From contig NC_083341.1 in the NCBI RefSeq assembly GCF_019175385.1, positions 60,421,800 to 60,485,799 on the forward strand: a stretch of DNA of 64,000 bases, read 5' to 3'. This DNA is from Lycium barbarum. Its lineage: Eukaryota; Streptophyta; Magnoliopsida; Solanales; Solanaceae. This document shows positions 32,354 to 60,562 of this stretch, one piece after another; within the stretch, counting starts at the first letter, position 1; every line of letters starts with the position of its first letter. The notes below the pieces were generated by a model. That model saw nothing but the letters and a program-made list of their open reading frames with translations, made no database searches and was not told where the DNA came from. The position numbers and the translations under genes were made by a program.

Positions 32354-32772
32354 GAGAAAAGGACCAAAAGCATCCATAATGTTTGGGTTTGGATCAAAAT
32401 CATACATATTCTTTCACATGGAGCACTAATAGTACATTATGTTTGCATAAGTGGTGCACTTTTAGTCAAACTCCCAAATAAATTTAACGGAAAAGAACAA
32501 AAATGCCCCTGAACTTTTAGAAAAGGTATAAAAATACCCTTTATTCATCTATTTTGCTAAAACTACCCCTCAATTCAAATTTTTGGCTCATTTATTCCCC
32601 TTGACTAACGGACAACACTAATTTTTTTTTAAAATAAATAAATTGCACATGACATTTTATTACTGAAAAATTGATTTATTCTTTTACAAAGAAATCTGAA
32701 AAATCGTTATTTGTAGAATAAGAAAAAATAATTTTTCAACATCCGTTTCTTTAAAAAACAAATGTAGTAAGC

Positions 32773-32809
<37 letters not shown>

Positions 32810-33534
32810 AAATTGGATTTTCATTAAAACATGTGGAATTTTTTTAAGTTTGGAAAACTTTTTTTAATGGGTGGAAACCCCATTTTTTTTTTTAGAAAAT
32901 TCAATTTTTAAATCTGAAAAACTGATTGTTTTTTTAAGTAAAATGTGCAAACCTAATACTCCATAATTTTCTTCTAGATTTTAAAAAAAGACAGTTTTCT
33001 GGTTTTTTTTTAAACATAGTTTTTCCATAAAAAATTTAATTTTTTCAGGTTTTTATAAAAATCCAATTTTTCACATTTTGAAAAGAAAAAAAAATTAGTG
33101 TTGTCCGTTAGTCAAGGTTTTACTCGTTAAAAAAAAGTTTTCCAAATTTAAAAAAAAAATCAAATTTAAAAAAATTCCAAGGTTTCAGATTTCTTTTTAA
33201 AAGAATAAATCAATTTTTCAGTAATAAAATGTCATGTGCAATTTATTTTTATTTTTTAAAAAAATATTAGTGTTGTCCGTTAGTCAAGGGGAATAAATGA
33301 GCCAAAAAGTTGAATTGAGGGGTAGTTTTAGCAAAATAGATGAATAAAGGGTATTTTTATACCTTTTCTAAAAGTTCAGGGGCATTTTTGTTCTTTTCCG
33401 TTAAATTTATTTGGGAGTTTGACTAAAAGTGCACCACTTATGCAAACATAATGTACTATTAGTGCTCCATGTGAAAGAATATGTATGATTTTGATCCAAA
33501 CTCAAACATTATGGATGATTTTGGTCCTTTTCTC
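32354..33534. mobile_element. Foldback (long inverted repeat) element, 10-bp duplication
   Basis: Arms 32354-32702 and 33186-33534 are about 350 bp each and nearly identical as inverted copies (termini GAGAAAAGGACCAAAA ... TTTTGGTCCTTTTCTC). The flanking sequence TCTTTACCTC is duplicated perfectly (32344-32353 and 33535-33544). A 9-10-bp duplication with long arms fits a Mutator-like MITE or foldback element. The ~480-bp centre holds a (TA)n run (about 32777-32804) and a second partial copy of the arm phrase ATTAGTGTTGTCCGTTAGTCAAGG (33096 and 33270). No protein is encoded. Confidence 0.88.
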
Positions 33535-33750
33535 TCTTTACCTCATCAAACAACTAATTATATTATAGGATAATCCACATTGATTATTCACATAAACTTG
33601 TGCTTTATCTTTCATGTATAAATATTTATTCAAATCTTAATTTGTTAAATAATATTGATATTATTTACAAAATCGTGTACTACATAACTTGTTATACATG
33701 TGCAACACACCCGCCGAGTATATATATGTGTGTGTATGTATTTATTATAA

Positions 33751-34213
33751 AGTGTAGTGTCCTAGCTTTATGGCCAAGTGATACCACCTCTTCATTTTAG
33801 AAACAGCAACATAACATATACAATATTGAATCCTTTTAACTGACTTCTACTTGGGTAAAGAAACAGGTGAAAGGCAACTTCCAAAGGAACGTACTTGGTA
33901 TATTGTCGATCAAATAATGCAATTATCAGCCCCTAAATAATAGGTTTAGAAGCTCTACTTATCAACATATAAATATGTATGTATTTGAAAGTGTAGTGTC
34001 CTAGTTTTGATGGTCAAGTGAATACCACCTCTTCATTTCAGAAACAGCAACATAACATATACTGTACAATATTGAATTCTTTTAACTGACTTCTACTTGG
34101 GAAAAGAAGCATGTGAAAGGCAACTTCCAAAGGAACGTACTAGGTACCAGTTGTCGTTCAAATAATGCAATTATCAGCCCCCAAATAATAGGTTTAGAAG
34201 CTCTACTTATCAA
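33751..34213 (+). promoter_or_regulatory. Tandem duplication in the upstream region of the root-cap-like gene
   Basis: 33751-33989 and 33990-34213 are copies, about 93% alike by eye (AGTGTAGTGTCCTAG, CCACCTCTTCATTT, GGCAACTTCCAAAGGAACGTAC, CAATTATCAGCCCC, GGTTTAGAAGCTCTACTTATCAAC); the period is 239 bp. They lie 130-590 bp upstream of the start codon at 34342, so any control elements in the unit would be present twice. Which factors bind cannot be told from sequence alone. Confidence 0.8.
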
Positions 34214-34223
34214 CAACTAATAA

Positions 34224-34232
34224 CTATATATT
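34224..34232 (+). promoter_or_regulatory. Possible TATA box of the root-cap-like gene
   Basis: CTATATATT, about 110 bp before the ATG at 34342 and directly after the duplicated block. It is followed at about 30 bp by AGAAATTTCTGCAACTCATTC, a plausible transcript start region. This is the only TATA-like motif well placed for this ATG. Confidence 0.4.
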
Positions 34233-34700
34233 GGGGGATGTAGGAATAGAAATTTCTGCAACTCATTCAACACAAGTAATTGTTCAACTAGAGAGCGGCT
34301 AAGTAATAGCACTGCAGCAAATTCTATCAAACGTCACTAAAATGGCTAGATTTGTAGCCCACATTGTTGGTCTGATTGTCTTGCTAATGCTTATAGCAGT
34401 GAATCAGGCCAGTCCCCCTGGAATAGCTGATCATCCAAGCCATTCTCATTGCTCAGATGATGAGATTAAGCAATGCAAAAATCTTCCTCATTTTTGTCCC
34501 AAGTTCTGTCCAAATGGCTGCATAACGGAGTGTCGTTCTTGCAAGCCCATTTGTGTTGATGGTTCAGTACCACCTCCTGATGATCATGGTTCTGGATCTT
34601 ACCCTTCACCACCTACTCCAGCGTCACCACAATTGCCACCTCCATCTCTTCCTAAGGAGGGAACTCCTCCGCCATCCCCATCTCCTCCCAAGGAAACAAC

Positions 34701-35142
34701 TCCACCACCTTCATTGCCACCTCCTAGGGATAATAACGATCATGATGATGATGGTGATCATGATGGTGACGATCATGATCATGACAGTGATGATAATAAT
34801 CACGATGGTGATGGTGATGGTGATGGTGATGGTGATGGGGATGATCATGATGGGGAGGATGATGGTGATGATCAAGATCATAATTTAGGATCTCACTCTT
34901 CCCCACCCCCATCTCCTTCCAAGGAAGAAACTCCACCACCTTCATTGCCACCTCCTAGGGATAATAATGATCATGATGATAATGGTGATGATGATCATGA
35001 TGGTGATGGTGATGATCATGATCATGACGGTGATGATAATAATCACGATGGTGATGATGACGATGATGATGATAGTGGTGATGATGATCATGATGGTGAT
35101 GGTGATGACGATGATCATGATGGTGATGATCAAGATCATAAT
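34701..35142 (+). repeat. Coding minisatellite: Asp/His/Gly-rich blocks, 231-bp period
   Basis: Two large units start at 34701 and 34932 (TCCACCACCTTCATTGCCACC, then GGGATAATAA(C/T)GATCATGATGA); the period is 231 bp, i.e. 77 residues. Within each unit, GATGGTGAT/GATCATGAT triplet and hexamer repeats encode strings of Asp, Gly and His ([13 protein letters not shown]). The repeat is in frame, consistent with expansion under coding constraint while the gene was alive. The His/Asp richness suggests metal or calcium binding (inference). Confidence 0.9.
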
Positions 35143-35351
35143 TCAGGATCTCACTCTTCCCCACCTCCACCTTCACCTTCACCTTTACCAACGTTACCAC
35201 CAAAATCTCCTCCTAAGAAAGAAACTCCAACACCTTCACTTTCACCAACATTTCCTCCTAAGAAAGCAACTCCACCATCATATCCTCCTAAGGAAGCTAC
35301 TCCACTGCCATCTCCACCTAAGGAATCAACTCCACCGCCATCCCCTCCTCC

Positions 35352-36938
35352 CACTACTAAAAAAACGGGAAACATCGACGACGAAAACCGACGGGCGCGT
35401 CGGTTTTTTTAATGAAACCGACTGGAAACCGACCCTTTACGGTTCGTCGGTTTACATAGCCTCGCTTTTTGGAAACCGACGGACCACGTCGGTTTTTTCC
35501 GACGGACTGCGTCGGTTACGTGGTCCGTCGAGTTTTATCCAATAATTTTAAAAAATTAAAAAAACCGACGGACTGAGTCGGTTTTTTTAATTTCTGATTT
35601 TTGATCTTATATTAAAACAATATATATTTTATGAAAAAACCGACGCACTGCGTCGATTTTTTCATAAAATTTAAGAATTAATTTTTAGAAAACCAACGGA
35701 CTGAGTCGGTTTTCCGTCGGTTTTCTGGAAAATTTCCAAAATTAATTTCCAGAAAACTGACGGACTGCATCGGTTTTCTGGAAAATTTCCTGCATGCAAT
35801 TCATGCATTTTCTGCAGCTACACCTGCACAGAAACCAGTATCAAAAGTTGCTCAAAACTAGCATTAAAATGCTCCAAATCAATTCTAAAAGAGCTACAAC
35901 ACATAAAATCACCCTAAGTAACAATCAAACACATCAAACACTATCTAAACACATTAAATACGATCTAAATAGACCTTCAAAGTTCAAAAACATTTAAATG
36001 TCCAACCAAAAGTACCATTAACTAGTTCCATAAAGCATAAAACATAAGTCCATTATGAAATCCAAACTAAAACATAAGCCCCATGACTATATAAATGAAC
36101 CCTAACCGCTTCCGGTTTCAAATACTTCTTACACCGGCAACGAGAATAAGGACACCTAATTACCCCTTCATTTTGAAAAAGGTGAAGTGACATTGCATGT
36201 GTGTAAACTTGTCAACAAATTCATCGTGTACACCCACAAGATCACTATTATTTATATTATACATCCACATATGATCCATCTACAAAAATATACCCACAAA
36301 TTATTGAGGTTATAGAAATATATTTTAACTTAAGAATTCTAACTTAAAATATAACTTAAGAAAACACAATCCCAACCAATTCTAACTTTGAATTCTCAAT
36401 AACAATTCTAACTTTAATAACTTATGAATTCTAACTTTAATATAACTTTTAAAAGCACAATCCCAACCAATTCTAACTTTGAATTCTCAATAACAAATCT
36501 AACTTTAATAACTTATGGATTCTAACTTTAATATAACTTTTAAAAGCACAATCCCAACCAATTCTAACTTTCAATTCTCAATAACAATTCTAACTTTAAT
36601 AACTTATGGATTCTAACTTTAACAACTTATGGAGTATAACTTCAATATAACTTTGAAAAGCACAATCCCAACCAATTCTAAAAATTGAAAAGTAAATCTA
36701 GCCAAATAAAGTCTACATTTTAGTTTTGAGGTTATAGAAATATTATGACTTAACAATTCTAACCTTGAAAAGCACAATCACAACCAATTCTAACTTTGAA
36801 TTCTCAATAACAATTCTAACTTTAATAACTTATGGATTCTAACTTTAATATAACTTGGAAAAGCACAATCCCAACCAATTCTAACTAAGCTAACACAAAT
36901 ACATTAACAATGAACATAAAAATTAGCACAATCTCAAG

Positions 36939-36989
<51 letters not shown>

Positions 36990-38480
36990 AGTAAACTAGT
37001 CAAATAAAGTTTAAATTTTTTCACAAATTTAACAATAATTTAAGAAAGCACAACACCAACCAATTCTAACTTTCAATTCTCAATAACAATTCTAACTTTA
37101 ATAACTTATGGATTCTAACTTTAACAACTTATGGATTATAACTTCAATATAGCTTTGAAAAGCACAACCCCAACCAATTCTAAAAATTGAAAAGTAAATC
37201 TAGCCAAATAAAGTCTACATTTTAGTTTTGAGGTTATAATATTATTATAGAAATATTATAACTTAACATTCTAACCTTGAAAAGCACAATCCTAACCAAT
37301 TTTAACTTTGAATTCTCAATAACAATTCTAACTTTAATAACTTATAGATTCTAACTTTAATATAACTTTGAAAAGTACAATCCCAACCAATTCCAAAAAT
37401 TGAAAAGTAAATCTAGTCAAATAAAGTCTACACTTTAGTTTTGAGGTTATAGAAATACTATAAGTTAACAATTCTACTTTGAAAAGCACAATCTCAATCA
37501 ATTCTAATTTTGAATGCTCAATAAAAAATCTACTAACTTATGGATTCTAACAAAAAGCACAATTCCAACAAAAAAAAAAAACTAGTCAAATAAAGTATAC
37601 ATTTTTGCACGAATTCAACATCAATAATATTACAAACAATGATAACTAAGCTAACACAAATACATTGACAATGAACACAAAATATAGCACAATCTCATGG
37701 AAAAAAAAATGAAAAGTAAACTAGTCAAATAAAGTTTACATTTTTTCACAAATTCAACATTAATAACATTACAAATGATGTTTAACAAAGCTAAATAGAC
37801 TAACATTAGGCCTAAAATCTACAAATAAAATTAAAATTGAAAGAATTTTAAAAGCCCGAATTTAAAAGAAACTACCTCAAATTACAAGTTAAAAACGGGG
37901 CTGGGGTAGGTGGGTTGGGCTGCGTAGGTAGCGGCAGGTGGGCGGCAGGTAGCAGCAGGTGGCGAGCGTGGGTAGAGGGGGGTGGGCGGCGGGTTAGGGT
38001 TTTTTATTTTAGAGAGAAGTGGGTTTTTTGGGGGGAAGATAGCAAATGATATGCCAAACCCGTTTCTATCATATTGTTAAAAAAACCGACGCGGTCCATT
38101 GGTTTGTTTTAAAATGTTGACCAGCCTTTGACCAAAAAAAAAAAAAAAACCGACGTAGTCCGTCGGTTTCTTTAAAAAAATTCGTTTATTAATATTTTAC
38201 AAAAAAAAAATGAATTATAAATTATTTAATATATTTTTAAAAAACTAATTATTATTTTTTTAATAAAACTGACGTGGGACGTCGATTTTTGTAAAAACAA
38301 TTTGGCGAAAATATAATTTCAAAATTTTGCGAAAAAAACTGATGTTGTCCGTCGGTTTTTTAATTAAAAAAATTAGAAATACACAAAACCTACGCACTGC
38401 TTCAGTTTTCCGTCGGTTTTTCAAAGCGACGCAGTCCGTCGGTTTTTTGTCCGTCGAATTTTGCCAGTTTTTTAGTAGTG
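35352..38480. mobile_element. CACTA-type non-autonomous element in exon 1, duplication TCC
   Basis: Ends are CACTACTAAAAAAACGGG and (complement of right) CACTACTAAAAAACTGGC: a 13-bp perfect inverted repeat CACTACTAAAAAA, flanked by TCC (35349-35351 and 38481-38483). Both ends carry subterminal repeats pairing CCGACGGAC with GTCGGTTTTT (35380-35780 and 38085-38455). The interior (36330-37600) is an A/C-rich tandem array, and 37895-38000 is a G-rich block (GGCGGCAGGTAGCAGCAGGTGG). No transposase is present. The length of 3129 bp is modest for the superfamily. Confidence 0.93.
36330..37600. repeat. ~100-bp degenerate tandem array inside the CACTA element
   Basis: About eleven copies of a unit containing AAGCACAATCCCAACCAATTC, TAACTTTGAATTCTCAATAAC, AATTCTAACTTTAATAACTTA and TGGATTCTAACTTTAATATAAC (copy starts near 36363, 36451, 36547, 36660, 36771, 36866, 37048, 37161, 37281, 37376 and 37486). 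A (TA)n run (about 36950-36984) interrupts the array. It is non-coding. Confidence 0.85.
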
Positions 38481-38698
38481 TCCAAAGGTGATAACTCCAC
38501 CTTCTTCTTCTCCTTCACCTCCGTCAATTGGTTCTCCACCTCCTCCAACTTATCCATCACCCATTCCTAAACAACCTACACCTAAAAAGGTCAAGTGCAA
38601 GAACAAGTACTAGCCCAGTTATGCTGTCCAACATTTATGCCCTAGCTCTTGTCCTGACAATTGTAAAGTTGATTGTGTCTCTTGCAAACCTGTTTGTA

Positions 38699-38806
38699 GT
38701 AAGTTCTCCTTATTTTTTATTTTTGCAATAATTTCTCTAGTTTTTTCTTTATGTTTTATGTAAACACTATACTATGCTTTATCGAGTAATTTTATTTGGG
38801 ACGCAG
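38699..38806 (+). other. Intron of the root-cap-like gene (108 bp)
   Basis: GTAAGTTCTCC at the 5' side and TTTATTTGGGACGCAG at the 3' side, T-rich between. Splicing joins TGT-A to AG-TGT and gives ...CKPVC-K-CDKPGAV, matching the conserved family reading across the junction. The junction is phase 1. Confidence 0.85.
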
Positions 38807-38958
38807 AGTGTGACAAGCCTGGAGCTGTTTGTCAAGATCCACGTTTTATCGGAGGAGATGGGATTACTTTCTACTTCCACGGCAAGAAGGACAAAGATTT
38901 TTGCCTAGTTTCAGACCCTAAATTTCACATCAATGCCCACTACTTCACTTGGGTACAA

Positions 38959-41409
38959 TGTCACGACCCAACCGAAGGGCCATGACGGGTACCCGGTGCT
39001 AACCCACCTGGGCACCTCTTAACGTGCATACATATTTACATCTAGGTGAGCCACATAGCTAAATTATACTTTTATCCCTCATTCGTACTATTTCCATTGG
39101 GCAACAATACATTTGTATCATCATCAACAACTATGCCCACAACAATGTACATAAGCCGACGAGGCTAACAAAATGATATCCAAAATATAGGCCGACAAGG
39201 CCAAATACATCTAACTATATATACATGTCTACTAGCCTCTAAGGAGAGTATGTCACATCATATAGGCGGGACAGGACCCCGCCATGCCCATAAGTATGTA
39301 CACAAAAGAATAGATACCAAAAGTTGTAGCTCCGAATGAAATGGAGCTCCGCTACGTAGTCCTTGAGTAATAAAGTTATGGATCAAGCCTGTCTCCCTGG
39401 CCACCTGCGGGAATGACGCAGCGTCCACAAACAAAAGGACGTCGGTACGAAGAATGTACTGAGTATGTAAAACATGATCAACATCATTATAGAAGCATAA
39501 TAAACAACATAAGAAATAGCATAAGATGGGAGGTAGAAGAACCATCGTCATAAGCACTTACTTGCTTTTCATAGGGACATTCCATTTCTAATACGTGATT
39601 GTGTACATACATCTATATCCGTATCCGTATTCGTATCCGTACTCATTTAAACTTTCATACCCATATTCATATTCATAATCGTATTCATATTCATTTACAT
39701 ATTCATATTCATAGCATACCCGACCATGAAGGATCGGTGTTTCACATACCCGGCTATGACAAGGCTTGGTGATTATACATACCTGGCCCTACCAAGGCTC
39801 AGGGTTATCCGTACCCAACTGTAGTGGTGCGCGCACAATACATATCATACCCGACCATATAAGCTCGGGGTTACATAATAGTCATACATAGACACATATA
39901 CATAGGAGCTCATAAGCATCTTTGACATCATTACTATCGTCGTTTTATTACATCTATCCTTAGAGGATCACTCATCGTATAAGGAATTTAGTAGAATCAT
40001 AAACACAACGAGAATCATGAGCTTTAGTAGCTTTAAAGATAGAATCATTTTGAGGACATCATAGGCTCATGAAATAATAGATATATGGCCAAAGAACCAT
40101 GCCTTATCGAAAGAAAGGTTAGCATTACATACCTTTCCGTTCAACTATTCTATCACTTGAACGTTCTCCTTCAATGCTCACGTTTCTACCTTCATTAGAG
40201 TTATACTAACATTAGAAAATCGATAGCTTAGCATACTTGACTAAAGCTAGAGAAAATTGGACAACATCTCCTTTATTTATACGAATTCCTCCATATCATA
40301 TATCAACTCCCAAACATCAATGATAACAGTCACAACATCATAACAATAGTCTTTATTCAACCTACATTACCCATATTTCCCAATTCACTTCAAATCATCC
40401 ATATCCATGGTCATAGCACACTATTACGTTCACTCATATACAATGTCTATCCCATGTTCTCAACATCATTTATAACATAATCCTAATCACAACATATCAA
40501 GAATCATGACTCAATCCAAGCTATTACTCAAAAATGACACTATTCCCACATTCATGACCCATTTTCTATTTCCTTCTACAATCCAAGTCTTTCAACCTCT
40601 CAATACCTTAAACAACATGGAAATACCATAAAACTTACCTTAGATGGTGTAGGAATGAACCTTGGGTGGAAACACTTCACTTGAGCAAAACCCTAGTTCC
40701 ACCTCCATTTGAATTTCTTGTCTTGGATGAACTTTAATGAGTTTCTTACACTTGATTCACTTGGTTTGATGAAGTTGATCACTAATATCTCTTGAATTCT
40801 TGTGGGAGAAGTGTGGAGAAATATTCTAGAGAGTTCTAGAGAGAAGGGGAGTGAAGAGGAAATAAAATGAAATGAACTTGGTCCCTTATTAATATTACTC
40901 CAACTGTCCCGACCAATTTCTACGAACCAACATACGGTCCGTATAAATTATATTGACCGTATGTCTGGCTGTAGATTTAGTCCAGTGAGGCTGGCCATCT
41001 GGGCTGATTATACGGCCAAACATACGGCCAGTATATTTTATACGGCCTGTATGTTGGGCCATATAATGCCCAGTTCTTCCGAACTCATTCTCGTCGACTC
41101 GTTTGATCTCCAATCCTTATGGAACCTTCTTAACACTTGTTTATCACCTCATTAACAATCTAAGGGACGTTATAACTCTTCTCCAAAACATCATTAAGTC
41201 ATCATTAACTTGTTACTCGTAAATCCTTCCCGATACATATCGTATGCCTTGCCTTCTCTTGGAAAACTTTCTTCTCTTACCTCGAATGTCTTTGAAATCT
41301 CAATTAGGGTCATCAAATGTCATTTCTTACTTATTGAAATACCGTATACTTCGTGCTCTTCGTTAGTCTATTCACTGTGCATCAACAGAAAATTTTCCGA
41401 GGTGTAACA
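38959..41409 (-). mobile_element. Solo LTR in exon 2, 2451 bp, duplication TACAA
   Basis: On the minus strand it runs from TGTTACACCTCGGAAAATTT to GGTTGGGTCGTGACA, flanked by TACAA (38954-38958 and 41410-41414). No gag-pol is present, so it is a solo LTR left by recombination between the two LTRs of a full element. Near 40920-41060 it has clustered CATACGGCC/GGCCGTAT inverted motifs. The R/U5-like end (complement of GCGTCCACAAACAAAAGGACG at 39420) matches 60090-60160 of the LTR at 58038, so both belong to related chromovirus families. Confidence 0.92.
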
Positions 41410-42012
41410 TACAATCAATTGGTATCCTTCATAGCACTCACAAGATCTCAGTTGGTGCACTAAAAACAAAAATATGGGATGATTTCATTGACCGCCTCGC
41501 TCTCCACTTTGATAGTGAACCTATATTTCTTCCTAACAGTGATGGTGCAACGTGGAAATCGAAAACTGTACCTATGACCTCCATTACAAGAATCACTAAC
41601 ACTAATGAGGTTGTCATTGATATTGAAAATATTCTCACGATTACAACAAAGGTTGTGCCTATTACAGATCATGAATCCCGACTACATAACTACGGCATAA
41701 CGAATGATGATTGCTTTGCTCATCTTGAACTTGGAATCAAGTTTTTCTCTTTGAGTGATGAAGTGAATGGTGTTTTAGGGCAGACTTATAGGAAAGACTA
41801 TGTGAGCAGAGTCAAGATGGGTGTTCTAATGCCAATAATGGGAGGTGACAAAAAGTTTGCAGCTTGAGGACTCTTTGATGCTAACTGCTCCGTTGCTAGG
41901 TTCCAAGAAAATAGAGAACAAACTGATAATTATAAGGCTTCGTTGAATTTGGAGCTGCCAAGTTTGAGTTGCACTAATAGGATTTATGGACGTGGAATTG
42001 TTTGCAAGCGGT

Positions 42013-42110
42013 AGATATTATCATTGCATCCTAAGAGAGTCAAGAGATTATTCCATATAAAAGATATTATCATTGCATCCTCAGAGAGTCAAGTGATTAT
42101 TCCATATAAA
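42013..42110 (+). repeat. 49-bp tandem duplication after the stop codon
   Basis: AGATATTATCATTGCATCCTNAGAGAGTCAAG(A/T)GATTATTCCATATAAA occurs twice in a row (42013-42061 and 42062-42110), starting within the stop codon. It lies in the presumed 3'UTR of the root-cap-like gene. Confidence 0.85.
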
Positions 42111-42390
42111 ATAAGGTTATAAATTAAACCAATAGAATGGGTATTGACTAATAGTAATGGTGCTCAAGTACATTGTTTACATTAGACCTATTTGGGATGT
42201 GGTCCTTAACGGACATGGTTGAACCCGATAGGCTATCCTTTTTTTTTCTTCTTCTTATGCTATCTCCTTAATAACATTTTGATTTTTTCTATGTTAATGA
42301 ATATTCTTGTCTAAATCAAATGTTGGAAGAAAACGAAGTCATCATTCGACTGAGATGTATCTTCAATGTGAGTTCGAGCATATATTATAT

Positions 42391-43718
42391 GGTGAAGGGT
42401 CATATATACCCCTGTACTATCTCAAAATAGTTATGCGTATTCCCTGTTTGCTTTTTCGACGGTATATACTCCCGCCACTAGTGTATGGATCACATATGTC
42501 CCGTATTTAACGGCCACTTACAACTGGGCCACGTGGCACGATCCTGAACGCCCCCAACCCTTTTCTTCTTTTTATTTAATTTTAATATCCAAAAGCCCAA
42601 TTCTAGTACCCAATATTTGACCCATACCCGTAACCCGTTGGAAACCAAAATCTCCCTTCCCTTTCTCTGCAATTCCTCTTGCATTTTGCTGTCAAAGAGG
42701 AATCTCACATTTATTTCCACAATTTCCCCAAATTCTACAGCAATTCAAATGGACGGTGCTATGTATTAACATGAAGATGTTCGTTGTTGCAGTCATGACG
42801 ATGATGGCTATCTCCGCCGCTGATGCTCCGGCACCTGCTTCCGACGCCACCAGCTTGTCTTCATTGCTCTTGCTTTTGATATCGTCTTCTGACCCAGTGG
42901 ACGAATTAAGATTTCATCGTCTTCTTTCTCTCCGATTTGGGGTTGCACAAACAGAAGGAATCAAAAACTGAGCTCTGAGGGAAAACCCCATTGATGGATC
43001 GATCAAATTCTTGAGTCTCTCTTTATCCCTAATTGATGGGTCAATATTAGTTGTAATGAAAATTGTATAAAGCCACCCAAGTTTCCATTGCTATCAGTTT
43101 TTACTTTCAGTTCCTGTTTGCTGCCGGAACTGAGGAGAGCTGGTGCATACATTTCACACTGTTAAATGTTAATTATGAAATTTTGGAATCTTCGACGTTG
43201 TTGGTATAAGAAACTACTTTAGGATAAGGTTTTCACATGAAGTGGGTTACTTTAAGATGTCTTTTAAAAAGCTTATGTGTTTCTTAGAAATGATAAAGTG
43301 TAGCTACAGACAATCATAAAAAAGTTTGTCCAATTAAAAAAAAAAAAAAACTGGAGGAGATAATTGCACCCAAAGTAGTGGCCATGGAAGAAGCCAAAGA
43401 AAACTTTGAGAAGAAAGAAATGGTGGAACTGGGAGAGAAGAAGACGATGAATTTTTAAGACTTAATTCGTCACCGGGTCGTGTACCAGGGGCGGGTCCGG
43501 ATTAAAAGAATTAGCTGGTCCAATATTTAATTAAAAAAAAACCAAAAAAGGGGCTGGACCGTTGAGATCGTGCCACGTGTCCAACTGAAAGTGGCCGTTA
43601 GACGCGGGGCATATGTGATCGATATACTAACAGCTGGGGTATATATCATCGAAAAAACAAACGGGGGATACGCACAACTATTTTGAGATAGTACAGGGGT
43701 ATATATGACCCTTTGCCG
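42391..43718. mobile_element. Mutator-like element with ~170-bp inverted repeats (Pack-MULE candidate)
   Basis: Ends read GGTGAAGGGTCATATATACC and (complement) GGCAAAGGGTCATATATACC. Similarity continues for roughly 170 bp through ...CTCAAAATAGTT(A/G)TGCGTAT..., ...AACGGCCACTT..., CACGTGGCACGATC. The flanking sequence TATATTATAT occurs on both sides (42381-42390 and 43719-43728), fitting the 9-10-bp duplication of Mutator-like elements; the right end has one extra G. The interior has coding-like pieces, including an arabinogalactan-peptide-like frame (42771-42971) and a Lys/Glu-rich piece (about 43355-43450), but no transposase. Confidence 0.78.
42771..42971 (+). pseudogene. Arabinogalactan-peptide-like reading frame carried by the MULE
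   Basis: 66 codons from ATG 42771. The N-terminus MKMFVVAVMTMMAISAADAP is a hydrophobic signal peptide, followed by APAPASDATS, the short Ala/Pro-Ser motif of AG peptides (small GPI-anchored arabinogalactan proteins). The expected C-terminal GPI-anchor region is only partly matched (SLLLLLISSS), and the frame then continues into unrelated Arg/Phe-rich residues to a TGA at 42969. So the beginning resembles the family and the end does not. This is consistent with a captured gene piece rather than a full gene. It could still be transcribed if the element supplies a promoter. Confidence 0.6.
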
Positions 43719-43744
43719 TATATTATATGCTAATTTTAGAACTA

Positions 43745-55278: not shown

Positions 55279-56355
55279 TGTTACACCTCAGACATTTCGC
55301 GTCGTCGTGCGGTGATTAAACTAACTCAAGCTAAGGCATACATAAAGTCCCTACAAGTAATAAGAGTATTTAATAATTTTAATTAAGATTCCAAAGACAT
55401 TTGAGGCAAGAGAAGAAAATTCGTCAAGGGCAAGTGGGGTATAAGTGGTATTTAAGAAAGATTTCGCAAACTATCGAGCTAAGGATTGATTAGTAATGTC
55501 TTGGGAAGAAGTTATACGGATATTTAGGTGGTTAATAAAGTATTAAACAAGTGCCAAGAAGGTTCCATAAGGATTGGAAATCGAACGAATCGACGAGAAC
55601 AAGTTCGGGAGAAAGGTGGGTTATATGACCATTTATATGGTCTGTATAACAGTCACAGTGAAGGATCATCACTAGATGACTTATACAGACAGTATAAAAA
55701 TTATACGGACCATATAAGTGTCTGTATAATTCTTGACGGGCAGCTTTGTACTTTTTATAAATATAAGTCCCAAGTTCATATTTTTCATTTGCCATCTTCT
55801 CCACACCTCTCAAGAGCTCTAGAACATTCCATACACTATACAAACATAAATTCAAGGGAGATCAAAGATCAAATACCAAAAATTAGTGGAATCAAGTGCA
55901 AGGATGCTAGCAAGGGTTATGGGAAGCTAGAAATTCCTTTGGAATTGAAGTTGGGGTTTTCTCCAAGTGAAGTATTTTCATCCAAAGCCCATTCCTACAT
56001 AATCAAAGGTGAGTTGTTTTTGTTTATTTCATGTTATTAGGAGTATTGAATGATTGAAAGACTTAGATTATGGAAGAAAATAGAGTAGGAAGTGCAAATA
56101 TGGAAAAGGTGAAATTCTTGAATGGTAACATGACATGAATCATAGTTCTTGACATGCCATGAGTAAAATCTTGTAGTGAATGATGCAATTGGTTTTAAAG
56201 AAGTATTATATGAGAATGGATATGGTATTGTGCCATAGTTATGGTTATGAATGATTTTGATAGGGAATGTGCCTTACATACTCAATTCATTATTCGTACT
56301 GACGTCCTCTCTATTATGGATGCTGTGTTCATGCCCACAGGTAGACAGAGAGACT
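55279..56355 (+). mobile_element. 5' LTR (internally deleted) of the chromovirus at 55-60 kb
   Basis: Starts TGTTACACCTCAGACATTTCG and is co-linear with the 3' LTR at 58038 (CGTCGTCGTGCGGT, GTCCCTACAAGTAA, ACCAAAAATTAGTGGAATC, CATCCAAAGCCCATTCCTAC). It lacks about 950 bp corresponding to roughly 59120-60080, then resumes with CCTTACATACTCA...TTCGTACTGACGTCC...CATGCCCACAGGTAGA and breaks into pol at about 56360. The intact frame 55528-56040 is fortuitous. A TATA-like TTTTATAAATATAAG is at 55756. Confidence 0.85.
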
Positions 56356-57828
56356 ATTTCATTCCTAGATAGGGAAGTGAGAAGGCGCCAATATCAACAT
56401 CCCCAGTTGAGTCACTATAGAGATACACTTCCTCAGAAAGAGAAGTCACTATTCAAGATTTCTACTGATGGAGTTCTCAAGTATCGAGGCAGGCTATGTG
56501 TTCCAGATGTTGCAGGACTACGCCGTCAGATTTTGGAGGAAGTTCATTACTCCCGATATTCTATTCACCCAGCAGAAACAAAGGTGTACCATGATCTCAA
56601 GTTAATGTATTGGTAGGATGGAATGAAGAAGGATATTGCAGAGTTTGCAGTTCAATGCCCAAATTGTCAATAAGTGAAAATTGAACATCAAAAGCCAGGA
56701 GGACTGTTACAAGTCATGGAAATTCCAACCTGGAAATGGGAAGTGATCAACATGGATTTTATTGTAGGTTTTCCTCATTCTCGACGTAAGTATGATTCAA
56801 TATGGGTAATCGTGGACAGTCTTACAAAATCGGCTCATTTTCTTCCAGTCAGAACTATATATTCAGCAGAAGATTATGCAAGGTTGTATCTTAAAGAAAT
56901 AGTGCGACTTCATGGTGTCCCAGTGACTATTTTCACATATAGAAGAGCATAATTTACTGCTAAATTCTGGAAGTCCTTTAAAAAAGGTTTGGGAACTCAA
57001 GTGAGGCTTAACACAACATTTCACCCACAGACTGGTGGACAAGCAAAACGCACGATTCATACCCTGAAAGATATGTTGCGGGCATGTGTACTAGATTTCA
57101 GAGGTAATTGGGATGACTATTTGCCACTTATTGAGTTTGCATATAATAACAGTTATCATTCCAGCATCCAGATGGCTCCGTATGAAGCTCTGTATGGAAG
57201 GAAGTGTAGGTCGCCAATTGGATGGTTCAAAGTCAGAGAGACCCAACTAATAGGTCCATAATTGATTCAGCAAGCGATGAAAAAGATCAAGCTTATCAGA
57301 GACCGATTGTTGACAACCCAGAGTCGCCAAAAATCTTATGTGGACAACCGCCGACGAGACTTGAAATTCCAAATCAATGATTGGGTGTTCTTGAAAGTGT
57401 CACTGATGAAAGGCATAATGAGCTTCGGCAAGAAGGGCAAGCTTAGTCCCCGATATATTCAGCCTTATAAGATTGTACGCAAAGTGGGCCAAGTGGCTTA
57501 TGAATTGGATTTACCTCCAGAGCTTGAATTAGTCCATCTAGTTTTTCATGTGTCAATGCTCCGCAAATGTGTTAGAGATCCATCTAGAATCGTGCCAGTG
57601 GATGATATTCAAGTTACCGAAAGGTTGGCTTATGACGAGGTACCCATTTCCATACTAGATAGGCAAGTGCGGAGACTCAGAAACAAAGAGGTAGCCTCAG
57701 TTAAGGTCATGTGGAGGCATAATAACCGAGAGAAAATGACTTGGGAAGCGAAAGAAAATATGAAGTCCAAATATCTGCATTTATTTCCACCCCTAGAAGA
57801 GGTTCAAGACGAGACGCCATTGGCATAA
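56356..57828 (+). pseudogene. Chromovirus pol remnant: integrase plus chromodomain
   Basis: One frame holds, in order: GAG-pre-integrase/HHCC zinc finger (HYSRYSIHP...YHDL...CPNC, 56555-56670), integrase core (WKWEVINMDFIVGFP, DSIWVIVDSLTKSAHFLPVR, about 56730-56860; EIVRLHGVP), the conserved [23 protein letters not shown] region (about 57140-57205), and a C-terminal chromodomain (FHVSMLRKC... ILDRQVRRLRNKEVASVKVMW, about 57545-57710) of the Tekay/Del type. Four in-frame stops: 56614 TAG, 56671 TAA, 56950 TAA, 57259 TAA. The second catalytic Asp (in DRG) is replaced (FTYRRA), and the catalytic Glu of GQAER is Lys (GQAKR). Gag, protease, reverse transcriptase and RNase H are absent, deleted between the 5' LTR and this piece. 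Dead copy. Confidence 0.93.
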
Positions 57829-57999
57829 GGTATGTAATGCTTTCTTTTAGTATTTTTGGTCGTGTGTGGCCATGTTTTCTTGTTGTTGATGTTGTAGCCC
57901 TATGAGGCGATGTTATTTTGGGTGCTGTGACAGGATCTTAGTGCCATATTACAGGGGAAACTCTTGCGAAATTTCTGTAGAATTCCCGAGAACTTAACA

Positions 58000-58037
58000 T
58001 TCGAGGACGAATGTTCTTAGGGGGGGGGGGGGGGGAG
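58000..58037 (+). promoter_or_regulatory. Polypurine tract region with a 16-G run before the 3' LTR
   Basis: TCGAGGACGAATGTTCTTA, then G16 (58020-58035), AG, then the LTR start at 58038. A purine tract immediately before the LTR is the plus-strand primer of LTR elements. The equivalent tract of the neighbouring element (61050-61062) is GAGAGGGGGATAA. The G16 here looks longer than usual. Confidence 0.75.
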
Positions 58038-58390
58038 TGTTACACCTCGAAAAATTTCATGTCGTCGTGCGGTAAATAGACTAACGCAAGTTAAGGTGTA
58101 CATGATGTCCCTACAAGTAAGAACGAATACTTGATGATTCTAATTAAGATTTCAAAGACATTTGAGGCAAGAGAAGCAAGTTCGTTGAATGAAGTAAAAT
58201 ATAAGTCGTGTTTGGAGAGGTTTTTGCAAGTATCGAGTTAAAGATTTTTTAGTGATGTTTTGAGGAAGTTATAATGCTCCTTATATGGTTATTGAAGTAT
58301 TAAACAAGTGTTAAGAAGATTCTATAAGGATTAGAAATCAAACGAATCGACGAGAAAAATTTCGGAAAAAATTGTGAGTTGTATGACCAT

Positions 58391-58588
58391 TTATACGGTC
58401 CGTATAACTTTATACGACTGTATAAAGGTCCTTATAAAGGTCACAGTGAGGGGTCAGTCTTGGTGAGATTATACGGTTGCTTATACGGACCGTATAAGTG
58501 TCCGTATAACAGTTACAATATGGGTTGATTGTTGATGCAATTATACGGTCACTTATACGGGCCGAACAAGATTATACGGACCGTATAA
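58391..58588 (+). promoter_or_regulatory. Three perfect 17-19-bp palindromes upstream of the LTR TATA box
   Basis: 58391-58407 TTATACGGTCCGTATAA, 58480-58498 CTTATACGGACCGTATAAG and 58572-58588 TTATACGGACCGTATAA, with additional half-sites (TATACGACTGTATAA, TTATACGGTTGC, TCCGTATAAC, ATTATACGGTCAC). A candidate protein-binding or cruciform-forming module of the LTR promoter; function is inferred only from position. Confidence 0.7.
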
Positions 58589-58625
58589 GTGTCCATATAA
58601 ATCATGTCGGGTCAGATTTTATGAT

Positions 58626-58634
58626 TTATATATA
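58626..58634 (+). promoter_or_regulatory. TATA-like box of the 3' LTR
   Basis: TTATATATATGAGACCCAAGTTC lies 38 bp after the last palindrome. The 5' LTR has TTTTATAAATATAAGTCCCAAGTTC at the same relative site, so the TATA and CCCAAGTTC (possible start region) are conserved between the two LTRs. Confidence 0.6.
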
Positions 58635-60562
58635 TGAGACCCAAGTTCTTATTTTTCATTTCTCATTTCCTCCACATCTCAAGAGAGTTCTAGAACCTTC
58701 TGCATACCATACCAATATAAATCCAAGGGAGATCAAAGACCAAATATCAAAAATTAGTGGAATCAAGTGCAAGGATGCTAACTAGGGTTAGGGAAAGCTA
58801 GAAATTCCTTTGGAATTTAAGTTGGGGTTTTCTCCAAGTGAAGTATTTTCATCCAAAGCCCATTCCTACATAATCAAAGGTGAGTTTTTCGTTGTTTCAT
58901 GTTATTGAGAGTATTGAATGGTTGAAAGACTTGGATTATGGAAGAAAATAGAGTATGAAGAGCACATAAGGAAAAGGTGAAATTCTTGAATGGTAACATG
59001 ACATGAATCATAGTTCTTGCTATGCCATGAGTATAATCTTGTCAAGAATGATATTAAGGATGTTGAAGAAGCATTATATGTGAATGAATATGATGTTGTG
59101 TTGTAATTATGGTTATGGGTACCCTTGAAGGGGAATTGTGAGAATTGAATAATGCTTAACTTGAAGAGGTTTATTGATTATGATATTGTGGGTGTTATTG
59201 ATGATGTTTGGGAGTTGTTTATTATATGGAGGAAGTTGTTGAAACAAGGAAAATGCTGCCCAATTTTCATTAGCTCTTAGTTGCTTTAGCTCAAGCTCAA
59301 GTATGTTTCCGGTTATCTAATCTTAGTACAAATTCTCTTGAATGTAGAATCGTGAGCTTGGAAGGAAACCATTTAGTCGATAGAGTTAAAGAGACATAAA
59401 GGTATGTAAGGCTAGCCCTTCTTTCTAAGGCATGACTTCCATCACATAATATCTTCTATCTTTCCATGACTTTCTTACATTTCGGAAATTACGAGTCCAT
59501 GATTATTAAGAGTTTCTCATGAGATAAAGATAAGAGATGAGCTATGATAATGATGATTTTAGTCATAGAGATTCTTAGCGTATGAAAGGATGCTATTATA
59601 AGATTAATAATCTTGAAGTATGATTTCCTTGATTGTTATTCATTATTGATAGTCTCACCTCATATTGCTAGTTCCTTCAAGGCAACACATGATGATTTTG
59701 ATGGTTCCATAAGATAATCGGAGGTTACTGACCTTACGACACTCCGATAAAATTACAGCTTTTACTTGAGCTCTTATGCATGCTTCATGTTGAGTGTATA
59801 ATGATGATGACTACACCATGCCTAGATGGCCGGGCAGCATCGCTAAGGTGGGCGACTTATTACACCATGTCTATATGGCATGGGCAGACACCACTAGTGG
59901 GCGGCGCGAAATGATTACCCCGGACGCGGTGATGTTATTGATTCAGAAAGTTTATGTATGTATGTGTGATCTATTTTAAATGTAAGAGTGAGCATGCCTG
60001 ATTCCGCCTAAAGAGGCAAGCAGTTGCAGTTATCCTTTCTTCTTATACTTTCTATATTTCCTTATTATGTTATCATACATTCCTTACATACTCAGTACAT
60101 TGTTCGTACTGACATCCTTTTTATTTTATGGACGCTGTGTTCATGCCCACAGGTAGATAGGGAGATGGACCGAATACCTAGGAGCCTTATCAACAGTTGT
60201 ACAGGAGCACCTCACTACTCCGGAGGTGCAACCTATTGGTATATTCTTTTGTGTACATATTTGGGGCATGCCGGGGTCCTGTCCAGTCTTTATGACTTCA
60301 GTATTTCAGTTAGAGGTTCGTAGATACTTATATGTGGGTTGTAGATGTTATGGGATTTCTTCAGTGTATATCTTGTACATAATTTTGTAGCCTCATAGGT
60401 TTATGCATATATACATGTTTTGGGAGATTTGGAAATTGGTTTATGAAAAGTTCTATGTTGAAAATGATATATGTCCAGGTTGAATGTGATAGATAGCATG
60501 ACGAGTGGTGCTCGGTAGCCAGCTCCGGGTACCCGTCATGGTCCACTAGTTGAGTCGTGACA

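What the first reader, a model, noticed from the sequence alone, without database searches (positions are those of the whole stretch)
34342..42014. A root-cap/LEA-like gene stopped by two transposon insertions whose target duplications allow full in-silico excision
Seen: the CACTA at 35352-38480 (TCC/TCC) and the solo LTR at 38959-41409 (TACAA/TACAA) both lie in exons. Taking each out with one duplication gives an uninterrupted frame across both junctions (P-K codon join in exon 1, Q-S join in exon 2), through a 108-bp phase-1 intron. Two single-codon stops remain (38611 TAG, 41865 TGA). The stops must have arisen once the gene was no longer under selection, or preceded the insertions. Such a datable death of a secreted Cys/Pro/Asp-His-rich protein gene is useful for comparing species or accessions.
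Basis: partly seen in the sequence, partly recalled or inferred. Interest (0 to 1): 0.78.

Follow-up and report, generated by a model that had tools for sequence, protein, structure and literature searches.

The report
Plant root-cap gene killed by transposons
A nightshade-family gene for a secreted, proline-rich root-cap protein has been broken by two mobile-element insertions, two stop mutations and two small deletions, while undamaged relatives exist in related species, so it is an ordinary dead gene copy, although its protein family seems to contain a mucin-like fold.

Summary
A CACTA element (35352-38480, TCC duplicated) and a solo LTR (38959-41409, TACAA duplicated) lie in two exons of a Root_cap (PF06830) gene. 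Joining the flanks gives one 658-codon frame through a 108-bp GT-AG intron, with internal stops only at 38611 and 41865.

The frame is whole but the protein is not.

Relatives without these lesions exist in Lycium ferocissimum, Anisodus and Solanum. Some other Lycium and Anisodus copies also look decayed. It is best read as a dead duplicate; loss of the function from the species is not shown.

'Datable' is not supported: a solo LTR has no partner LTR, and the order of lesions cannot be resolved.

The parts
34342..35351 (+). Exon 1, first part: signal peptide, first Cys motif, Pro-rich stalk with D/H-rich arrays
   Evidence: Open for 336 codons
34738..35139 (+). Span of the two Asp/His-rich tandem-repeat arrays (34738-34872, 34967-35139)
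35349..35351 (.). Target duplication TCC, left copy
35352..38480 (.). Non-autonomous CACTA transposon, 3129 bp
   Evidence: Inverted CACTA ends, CCGACG repeats near both ends, no frame of 80 aa or more wholly inside
38481..38483 (.). Target duplication TCC, right copy
38484..38698 (+). Exon 1, second part: end of the stalk and second Cys motif
38611..38613 (+). Stop TAG, codon 380 of the joined frame; Tyr in 88 of 99 relatives with the motif
38619..38620 (+). Site of a missing Cys codon (in-frame 3-bp loss)
   Evidence: Alignment
38699..38806 (+). Intron, GT-AG, 108 bp, phase 1
38807..38958 (+). Exon 2, first part: start of the DPR module
38941..38943 (+). Junction codon of an in-frame deletion of about 33 bp (11 residues net)
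38954..38958 (.). Target duplication TACAA, left copy
38959..41409 (-). Solo LTR, 2451 bp, antisense to the gene; probably from a chromovirus
   Evidence: Ends and duplication; matches the opposite strand of 58038-60562
41410..41414 (.). Target duplication TACAA, right copy
41415..42014 (+). Exon 2, second part, to the terminal TAG at 42012-42014
41736..41903 (+). Pfam Root_cap segment (PF06830)
   Evidence: E 6.7e-28, 97.1 bits against a cut-off of 27
41865..41867 (+). Stop TGA, codon 610, inside the Root_cap segment; Ser in 129 and Thr in 30 of 176 relatives with the pattern

Best explanation
This is a pseudogene of the plant Root_cap (PF06830) family from the nightshade family, probably from near Lycium or Anisodus. 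The working relatives are secreted proteins: signal peptide, two Cys motifs around an extensin-like Pro-rich stalk, then a C-terminal module that I predict to have the von Willebrand factor type D (VWD) fold, with the Root_cap segment in it. Here a non-autonomous CACTA transposon cut exon 1, and an LTR element, probably a chromovirus, entered exon 2 in antisense and was reduced to a solo LTR, usually by recombination between its two LTRs. Two nonsense mutations and two in-frame deletions (about 33 bp and 3 bp) add to this. Shown: structure, duplications, frame, stops, deletions, family. Inferred: that it is a redundant duplicate that lost constraint, how the solo LTR arose, and that at most a 356-residue stub without the C-terminal module could be made. 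The order of the lesions is unknown.
For: Element ends and duplications. Joined frame with two internal stops against 22 and 118 in the other forward frames. Pfam Root_cap. Relatives without these lesions in Lycium, Anisodus and Solanum at 78-80% identity over the C-terminal 291 residues. Missing residues. Window end branch 0.16 against 0.043 and 0.046 in its two nearest neighbours; changes at 6 of 97 otherwise invariant columns (two of them, C11S and F91Y, are effects of the deletions) against 0-4 in the 30 rows other than P0130 and P0131. Relative rate 28 against 9, p 0.0026, with P0123 as partner and Solanum bulbocastanum as outgroup. About 33 excess replacements predict about 1.6 nonsense changes under neutrality; 2 are seen (rough). 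No GTRAG or GTATG donor in 34342-35600.
Against: The rate excess depends on the rows chosen: 20 against 10 (p 0.10) with Nicotiana attenuata or P0001 as outgroup, and 19 against 13 (p 0.38) when the partner is the Anisodus copy with those outgroups. Both small deletions keep the frame and no frameshift was seen; chance gives about 1 in 9, but it could mean that selection lasted beyond the first damage. The species and its other copies are unknown: the own-genome search did not complete. No RNA data.
Confidence: 0.9

Rival explanations
1. The locus still makes a shortened secreted protein: the standing frame of 356 residues (signal peptide, first Cys motif, Pro-rich and D/H-rich stalk, then 20 residues read from the CACTA end) is transcribed, polyadenylated inside the CACTA and used.
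For: The frame 34342-35412 is open; no stop or frameshift in the first 336 codons; the D/H-rich arrays are peculiar to this copy among the Solanaceae relatives fetched.
Against: Absence of stops there is weak evidence: the part has fewer stop-prone codons (0.26 against 0.41 opportunities per codon). The module that defines the family is lost. No close relative of the stub alone was listed among the 42 proteins.
Confidence: 0.06
2. The CACTA and the LTR are removed from the transcript as introns and the gene is in part functional, as described for some CACTA alleles.
For: Soybean TgmR* is spliced out together with the intron in which it lies (PMC4219821, passages read).
Against: Both insertions here are in exons; no GTRAG or GTATG donor lies in 34342-35600; two stops and two deletions would remain.
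Confidence: 0.02
3. This is the species' only orthologue of P0123/P0124, so the lineage lost the function.
For: The window groups with P0123 and P0124, 84/91 support.
Against: The support is weak and goes in a tree with more degenerate copies; P0130 and P0131 show that Lycium ferocissimum holds further copies beside P0123. Not testable without the own genome.
Confidence: 0.25
4. Assembly or base-call errors mimic part of the damage.
For: No reads were available.
Against: Exact duplications of 3 and 5 bases at element ends and lesions of several independent kinds are hard to get by error.
Confidence: 0.03

Closest known systems
Root_cap family proteins (PF06830; 'late embryogenesis abundant protein-related')
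   Same: Signal peptide, Cys motifs, Pro-rich stalk, DPR module and Root_cap segment; closest relatives P0123 (Lycium ferocissimum, named extensin-2-like) and P0124 (Anisodus acutangulus, N-terminal end missing)
   Different: Broken by two insertions, two stops and two in-frame deletions; D/H-rich arrays that the fetched Solanaceae relatives lack
CACTA (En/Spm-type) transposons, e.g. Tgmt* of soybean (PMC2613891, passages read)
   Same: CACTA ends, 13-base inverted repeats, 3-base duplication, repeated motifs near the ends
   Different: 3.1 kb instead of 20.5 kb, no frame of 80 aa or more wholly inside, interior of AT-rich tandem repeats
Solo LTRs of Ty3/gypsy chromoviruses
   Same: TG...CA ends, 5-bp duplication, two long stretches 68 and 72% identical to an LTR (58038-60562) behind an SH3_Tf2-1 domain
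   Different: Nothing unusual seen; family name not determined
VWD domains of gel-forming mucins and VWF (fold of the family's C-terminal module only)
   Different: Marginal sequence similarity (Pfam VWD in 5 of 61 members, best E 0.0021); no profile hit among solved structures; Foldseek TM-scores over the whole model only 0.24-0.39 in the best rows

Membership tests
Root_cap (PF06830) | Pfam match above the curated cut-off | tested here: met
   97.1 bits against a cut-off of 27, with the internal stop given as X
Root_cap (PF06830) | C-terminal module of about 280 residues starting DPH/DPR and ending in the root cap segment, as defined in PMC10796529 (passages read) | tested here: met
   DPRFIGGDGITFYF to GRGIVCKR present, but about 11 residues are deleted and one stop lies inside
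Functional gene | Uninterrupted reading frame with conserved residues kept | tested here: not met
   Two insertions, two stops, two in-frame deletions
CACTA transposon superfamily | CACTA termini in inverted orientation and a 3-bp duplication | tested here: met
CACTA transposon superfamily | Repeated motifs near both ends | tested here: met
   CCGACG 5 times in the left 500 bp, 4 times in the reversed right 500 bp, none between in the forward orientation; it also occurs 5 times in the other orientation on the left
CACTA transposon superfamily | Own transposase (autonomous copies) | tested here: not met
   No stop-to-stop frame of 80 aa or more lies wholly inside the element; expected for a non-autonomous copy
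Solo LTR | One LTR with TG...CA ends directly flanked by a short duplication, no internal region | tested here: met
   38959-41409, TACAA on both sides
Chromovirus LTR | LTR of a chromodomain-bearing Ty3/gypsy element | tested here: inconclusive
   68-72% identity over two long stretches to the LTR at 58038-60562, behind an SH3_Tf2-1 domain; the Chromo match is below its cut-off (21.2 against 25.1 bits)
VWD domain (family's C-terminal module) | Fold similarity well above unrelated folds | tested here: met
   [not shown]
VWD domain (family's C-terminal module) | Pfam VWD above its cut-off | tested here: not met
   P0001: 12.7 bits against 22.9; 5 of 61 members listed at E <= 10, best 0.0021
VWD domain (family's C-terminal module) | Disulfides and assembly as in mucins | not testable with these tools
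   Predicted models only

The most novel reading that the evidence does not exclude
The Root_cap family is a plant counterpart of gel-forming mucins: secreted proteins with a (likely glycosylated) Pro-rich stalk, Cys motifs and a true von Willebrand factor type D domain, which help to organise root-cap mucilage or wall. The window holds one of several copies that decayed in the Lycium/Anisodus lineage. The fold part rests on two predicted models of relatives; the mucin-like role is inference.
Probability: 0.35. Interest if true: 0.6.

Novelty: new member of a known kind. Interest (0 to 1): 0.25.

Why it matters
As a locus it is a textbook case of gene death with clean insertion scars, usable as a presence/absence marker if the insertions vary among accessions. 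It also cautions that a rejoining frame does not prove that the rest of the protein is whole: only comparison with relatives showed the two in-frame deletions. The wider point is the family: if the DPR module is a VWD domain, a widespread and little understood family of secreted plant proteins gains a structural idea that can be tested.

Tried and rejected
Dating the insertions: not possible, no LTR pair and no DNA of relatives. dN/dS: not possible, only proteins of relatives at hand; replaced by branch lengths, invariant columns and relative-rate tests. Other copies in the window's own genome: search did not complete. Exact placement of the window copy: with P0123 and P0124 at only 84/91 support (33 rows; P0032 and P0002 left out as too short), unresolved with P0032 and part of P0246 added (18 rows). 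D/H-rich arrays as a family feature: rejected. Other copies of the gene in the window: none; besides the gene itself tblastn gave its two Cys motifs matching each other and two weak matches, E 0.13 and 0.88. Profile search of solved structures with alignment A1: 0 hits up to E 10. Papers linking Root_cap proteins to VWD or mucins: none in the listings (0 papers); in PMC10796529 the words Willebrand, VWD and mucin do not occur. The library lacks most subscription journals. (listings seen only) gave nothing specific on such a locus or on the function of the family.
Full report
What was checked. The region 33800-42600 was read and frames were listed on both strands. The CACTA element runs from 35352 to 38480 with TCC on both sides, the solo LTR from 38959 to 41409 with TACAA on both sides. 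CACTACTAAAA and its inverse occur once each in the window, at these ends. Joining the flanks in a script gives 1977 nt in one frame, with a 108-bp intron (38699-38806) and internal stops only at codons 380 and 610; the other two forward frames have 22 and 118 stops.

What the gene is. The last piece matches Pfam Root_cap with E 6.7e-28; the three other pieces match nothing at E 0.1. A search with the last piece gave 438 proteins, one with the C-terminal 291 residues of the joined protein 426; 120 were listed each time. The closest Solanaceae relatives are P0123 from Lycium ferocissimum (619 aa, 80%), P0124 from Anisodus acutangulus (372 aa, 80%, its N-terminal end missing) and four Solanum proteins (78-79%). 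P0123 and the Solanum proteins show the signal peptide, the Cys motifs, the Pro-rich stalk, the DPR module and the Root_cap segment. Two proteins outside Solanaceae score higher in bits but at 48% and 55% identity (P0121, P0122); they were not used in the trees.

Lesions that only comparison shows. Relatives read HFIGRRNENMKRDFTWVQ or nearly so where the window reads HYFTWVQ. Of 240 relatives my pattern fitted 190: 189 have 12 residues between HINxH and FTWVQ, one has 13; 50 did not fit and were not counted. The window has one. The alignment also shows PSCYAVQ in close relatives and PSYAVQ in the window: a conserved Cys is lost just after the TAG. The TAG stands where 88 of 99 relatives with the motif have Tyr; the TGA, inside the Root_cap segment, where 129 of 176 have Ser and 30 have Thr (the rest of the 240 did not fit those patterns). 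No frameshift was found. In the model of relative P0001 the deleted residues 43-54 take the end of one strand (37-46) and the loop to the next (55-65).

Constraint. In a tree of 33 proteins the window's end branch is 0.16 against 0.043 and 0.046 for its two neighbours. It differs at 6 of 97 columns that are invariant in the other rows, two of the six being effects of the deletions; 30 rows have 0 to 4 such changes, and two Lycium ferocissimum copies, P0130 and P0131, have 8 and 10. Relative-rate counts with P0123 as partner are 28 against 9 (p 0.0026, outgroup Solanum bulbocastanum) and 20 against 10 (p 0.10, outgroup Nicotiana attenuata or P0001). With the Anisodus partner they are 27 against 12 (p 0.024) and 19 against 13 (p 0.38). 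The control pair P0123/P0124 is even: 6 against 10, 5 against 9, 4 against 8. The acceleration is moderate. About 33 excess replacements at a nonsense-to-missense ratio of 0.048 predict about 1.6 stops (arithmetic on rough branch lengths); two are seen.

Decay is common around it. P0131 is labelled LOW QUALITY PROTEIN by its source and differs at conserved Cys residues. P0246 of Anisodus tanguticus reads a stretch in another frame, and P0032 of Anisodus acutangulus lacks its first part and an internal stretch. Some of this may be bad gene models. P0131 carries SNNFIWDA just before the DPR exon; the 3' end of the window's intron would translate as SSNFIWDA, which suggests close kinship with Lycium. 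The tree with these rows does not resolve who is whose orthologue.

The elements. The CACTA is 3129 bp, with CCGACG repeats near both ends (5 and 4), AT-rich tandem repeats inside and no frame of 80 aa or more wholly inside. Two soybean CACTA papers describe the same hallmarks (passages). Two long stretches of the solo LTR match the opposite strand of 58038-60562 at 68 and 72%. That LTR follows a frame with an SH3_Tf2-1 domain and a Chromo match below its cut-off, so the solo LTR lies antisense to the gene and is probably from a chromovirus.

Can the gene still speak? The standing frame gives 356 residues and stops at 35410. No GTRAG or GTATG donor lies in 34342-35600. The absence of stops in the first 336 codons is weak evidence for use, since that part has fewer stop-prone codons (0.26 against 0.41 opportunities per codon). 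A useful stub seems unlikely but is not excluded.

Verdict. The finding is a correct reading of a dead gene. It is more damaged than reported, it is not datable from this window, and it is probably one of several decaying duplicates. As a locus it is ordinary; the family's predicted fold is the more interesting lead.

Noticed in passing
[not shown]
   Followed up: partly
33735-34232: The region just upstream of the gene is a tandem duplication of about 250 bp at 88-89% identity, so the promoter region is partly doubled.
   Followed up: no
32354-33534: Element of 1181 bp with 290-bp inverted ends 98% complementary, flanked by TCTTTACCTC on both sides; looks like a recent Mutator-type MITE (type recalled).
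   Followed up: partly
42377-43731: A second inverted-repeat element just downstream of the gene, 151-bp ends 84% complementary; no obvious duplication at its flanks.
   Followed up: partly
34738-35139: In-frame D/H-rich arrays (77.5% D+H over 40 residues) within the Pro-rich stalk, not seen in the Solanaceae relatives fetched; a few other plants have D-rich linkers, highest 55% in P0238.
   Followed up: partly
55380-60562: Remains of a chromovirus-like element: integrase-type frames at 56251-57828, an LTR at 58038-60562, and LTR-like matches also at 55380-56354 that suggest nesting or a rearranged copy.
   Followed up: no
P0130, P0131 (Lycium ferocissimum), P0246 (Anisodus tanguticus), P0032 (Anisodus acutangulus): Several annotated Solanaceae members of the same clade look degenerate (frame change, missing stretches, changed Cys), suggesting repeated decay of extra copies or bad gene models.
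   Followed up: partly
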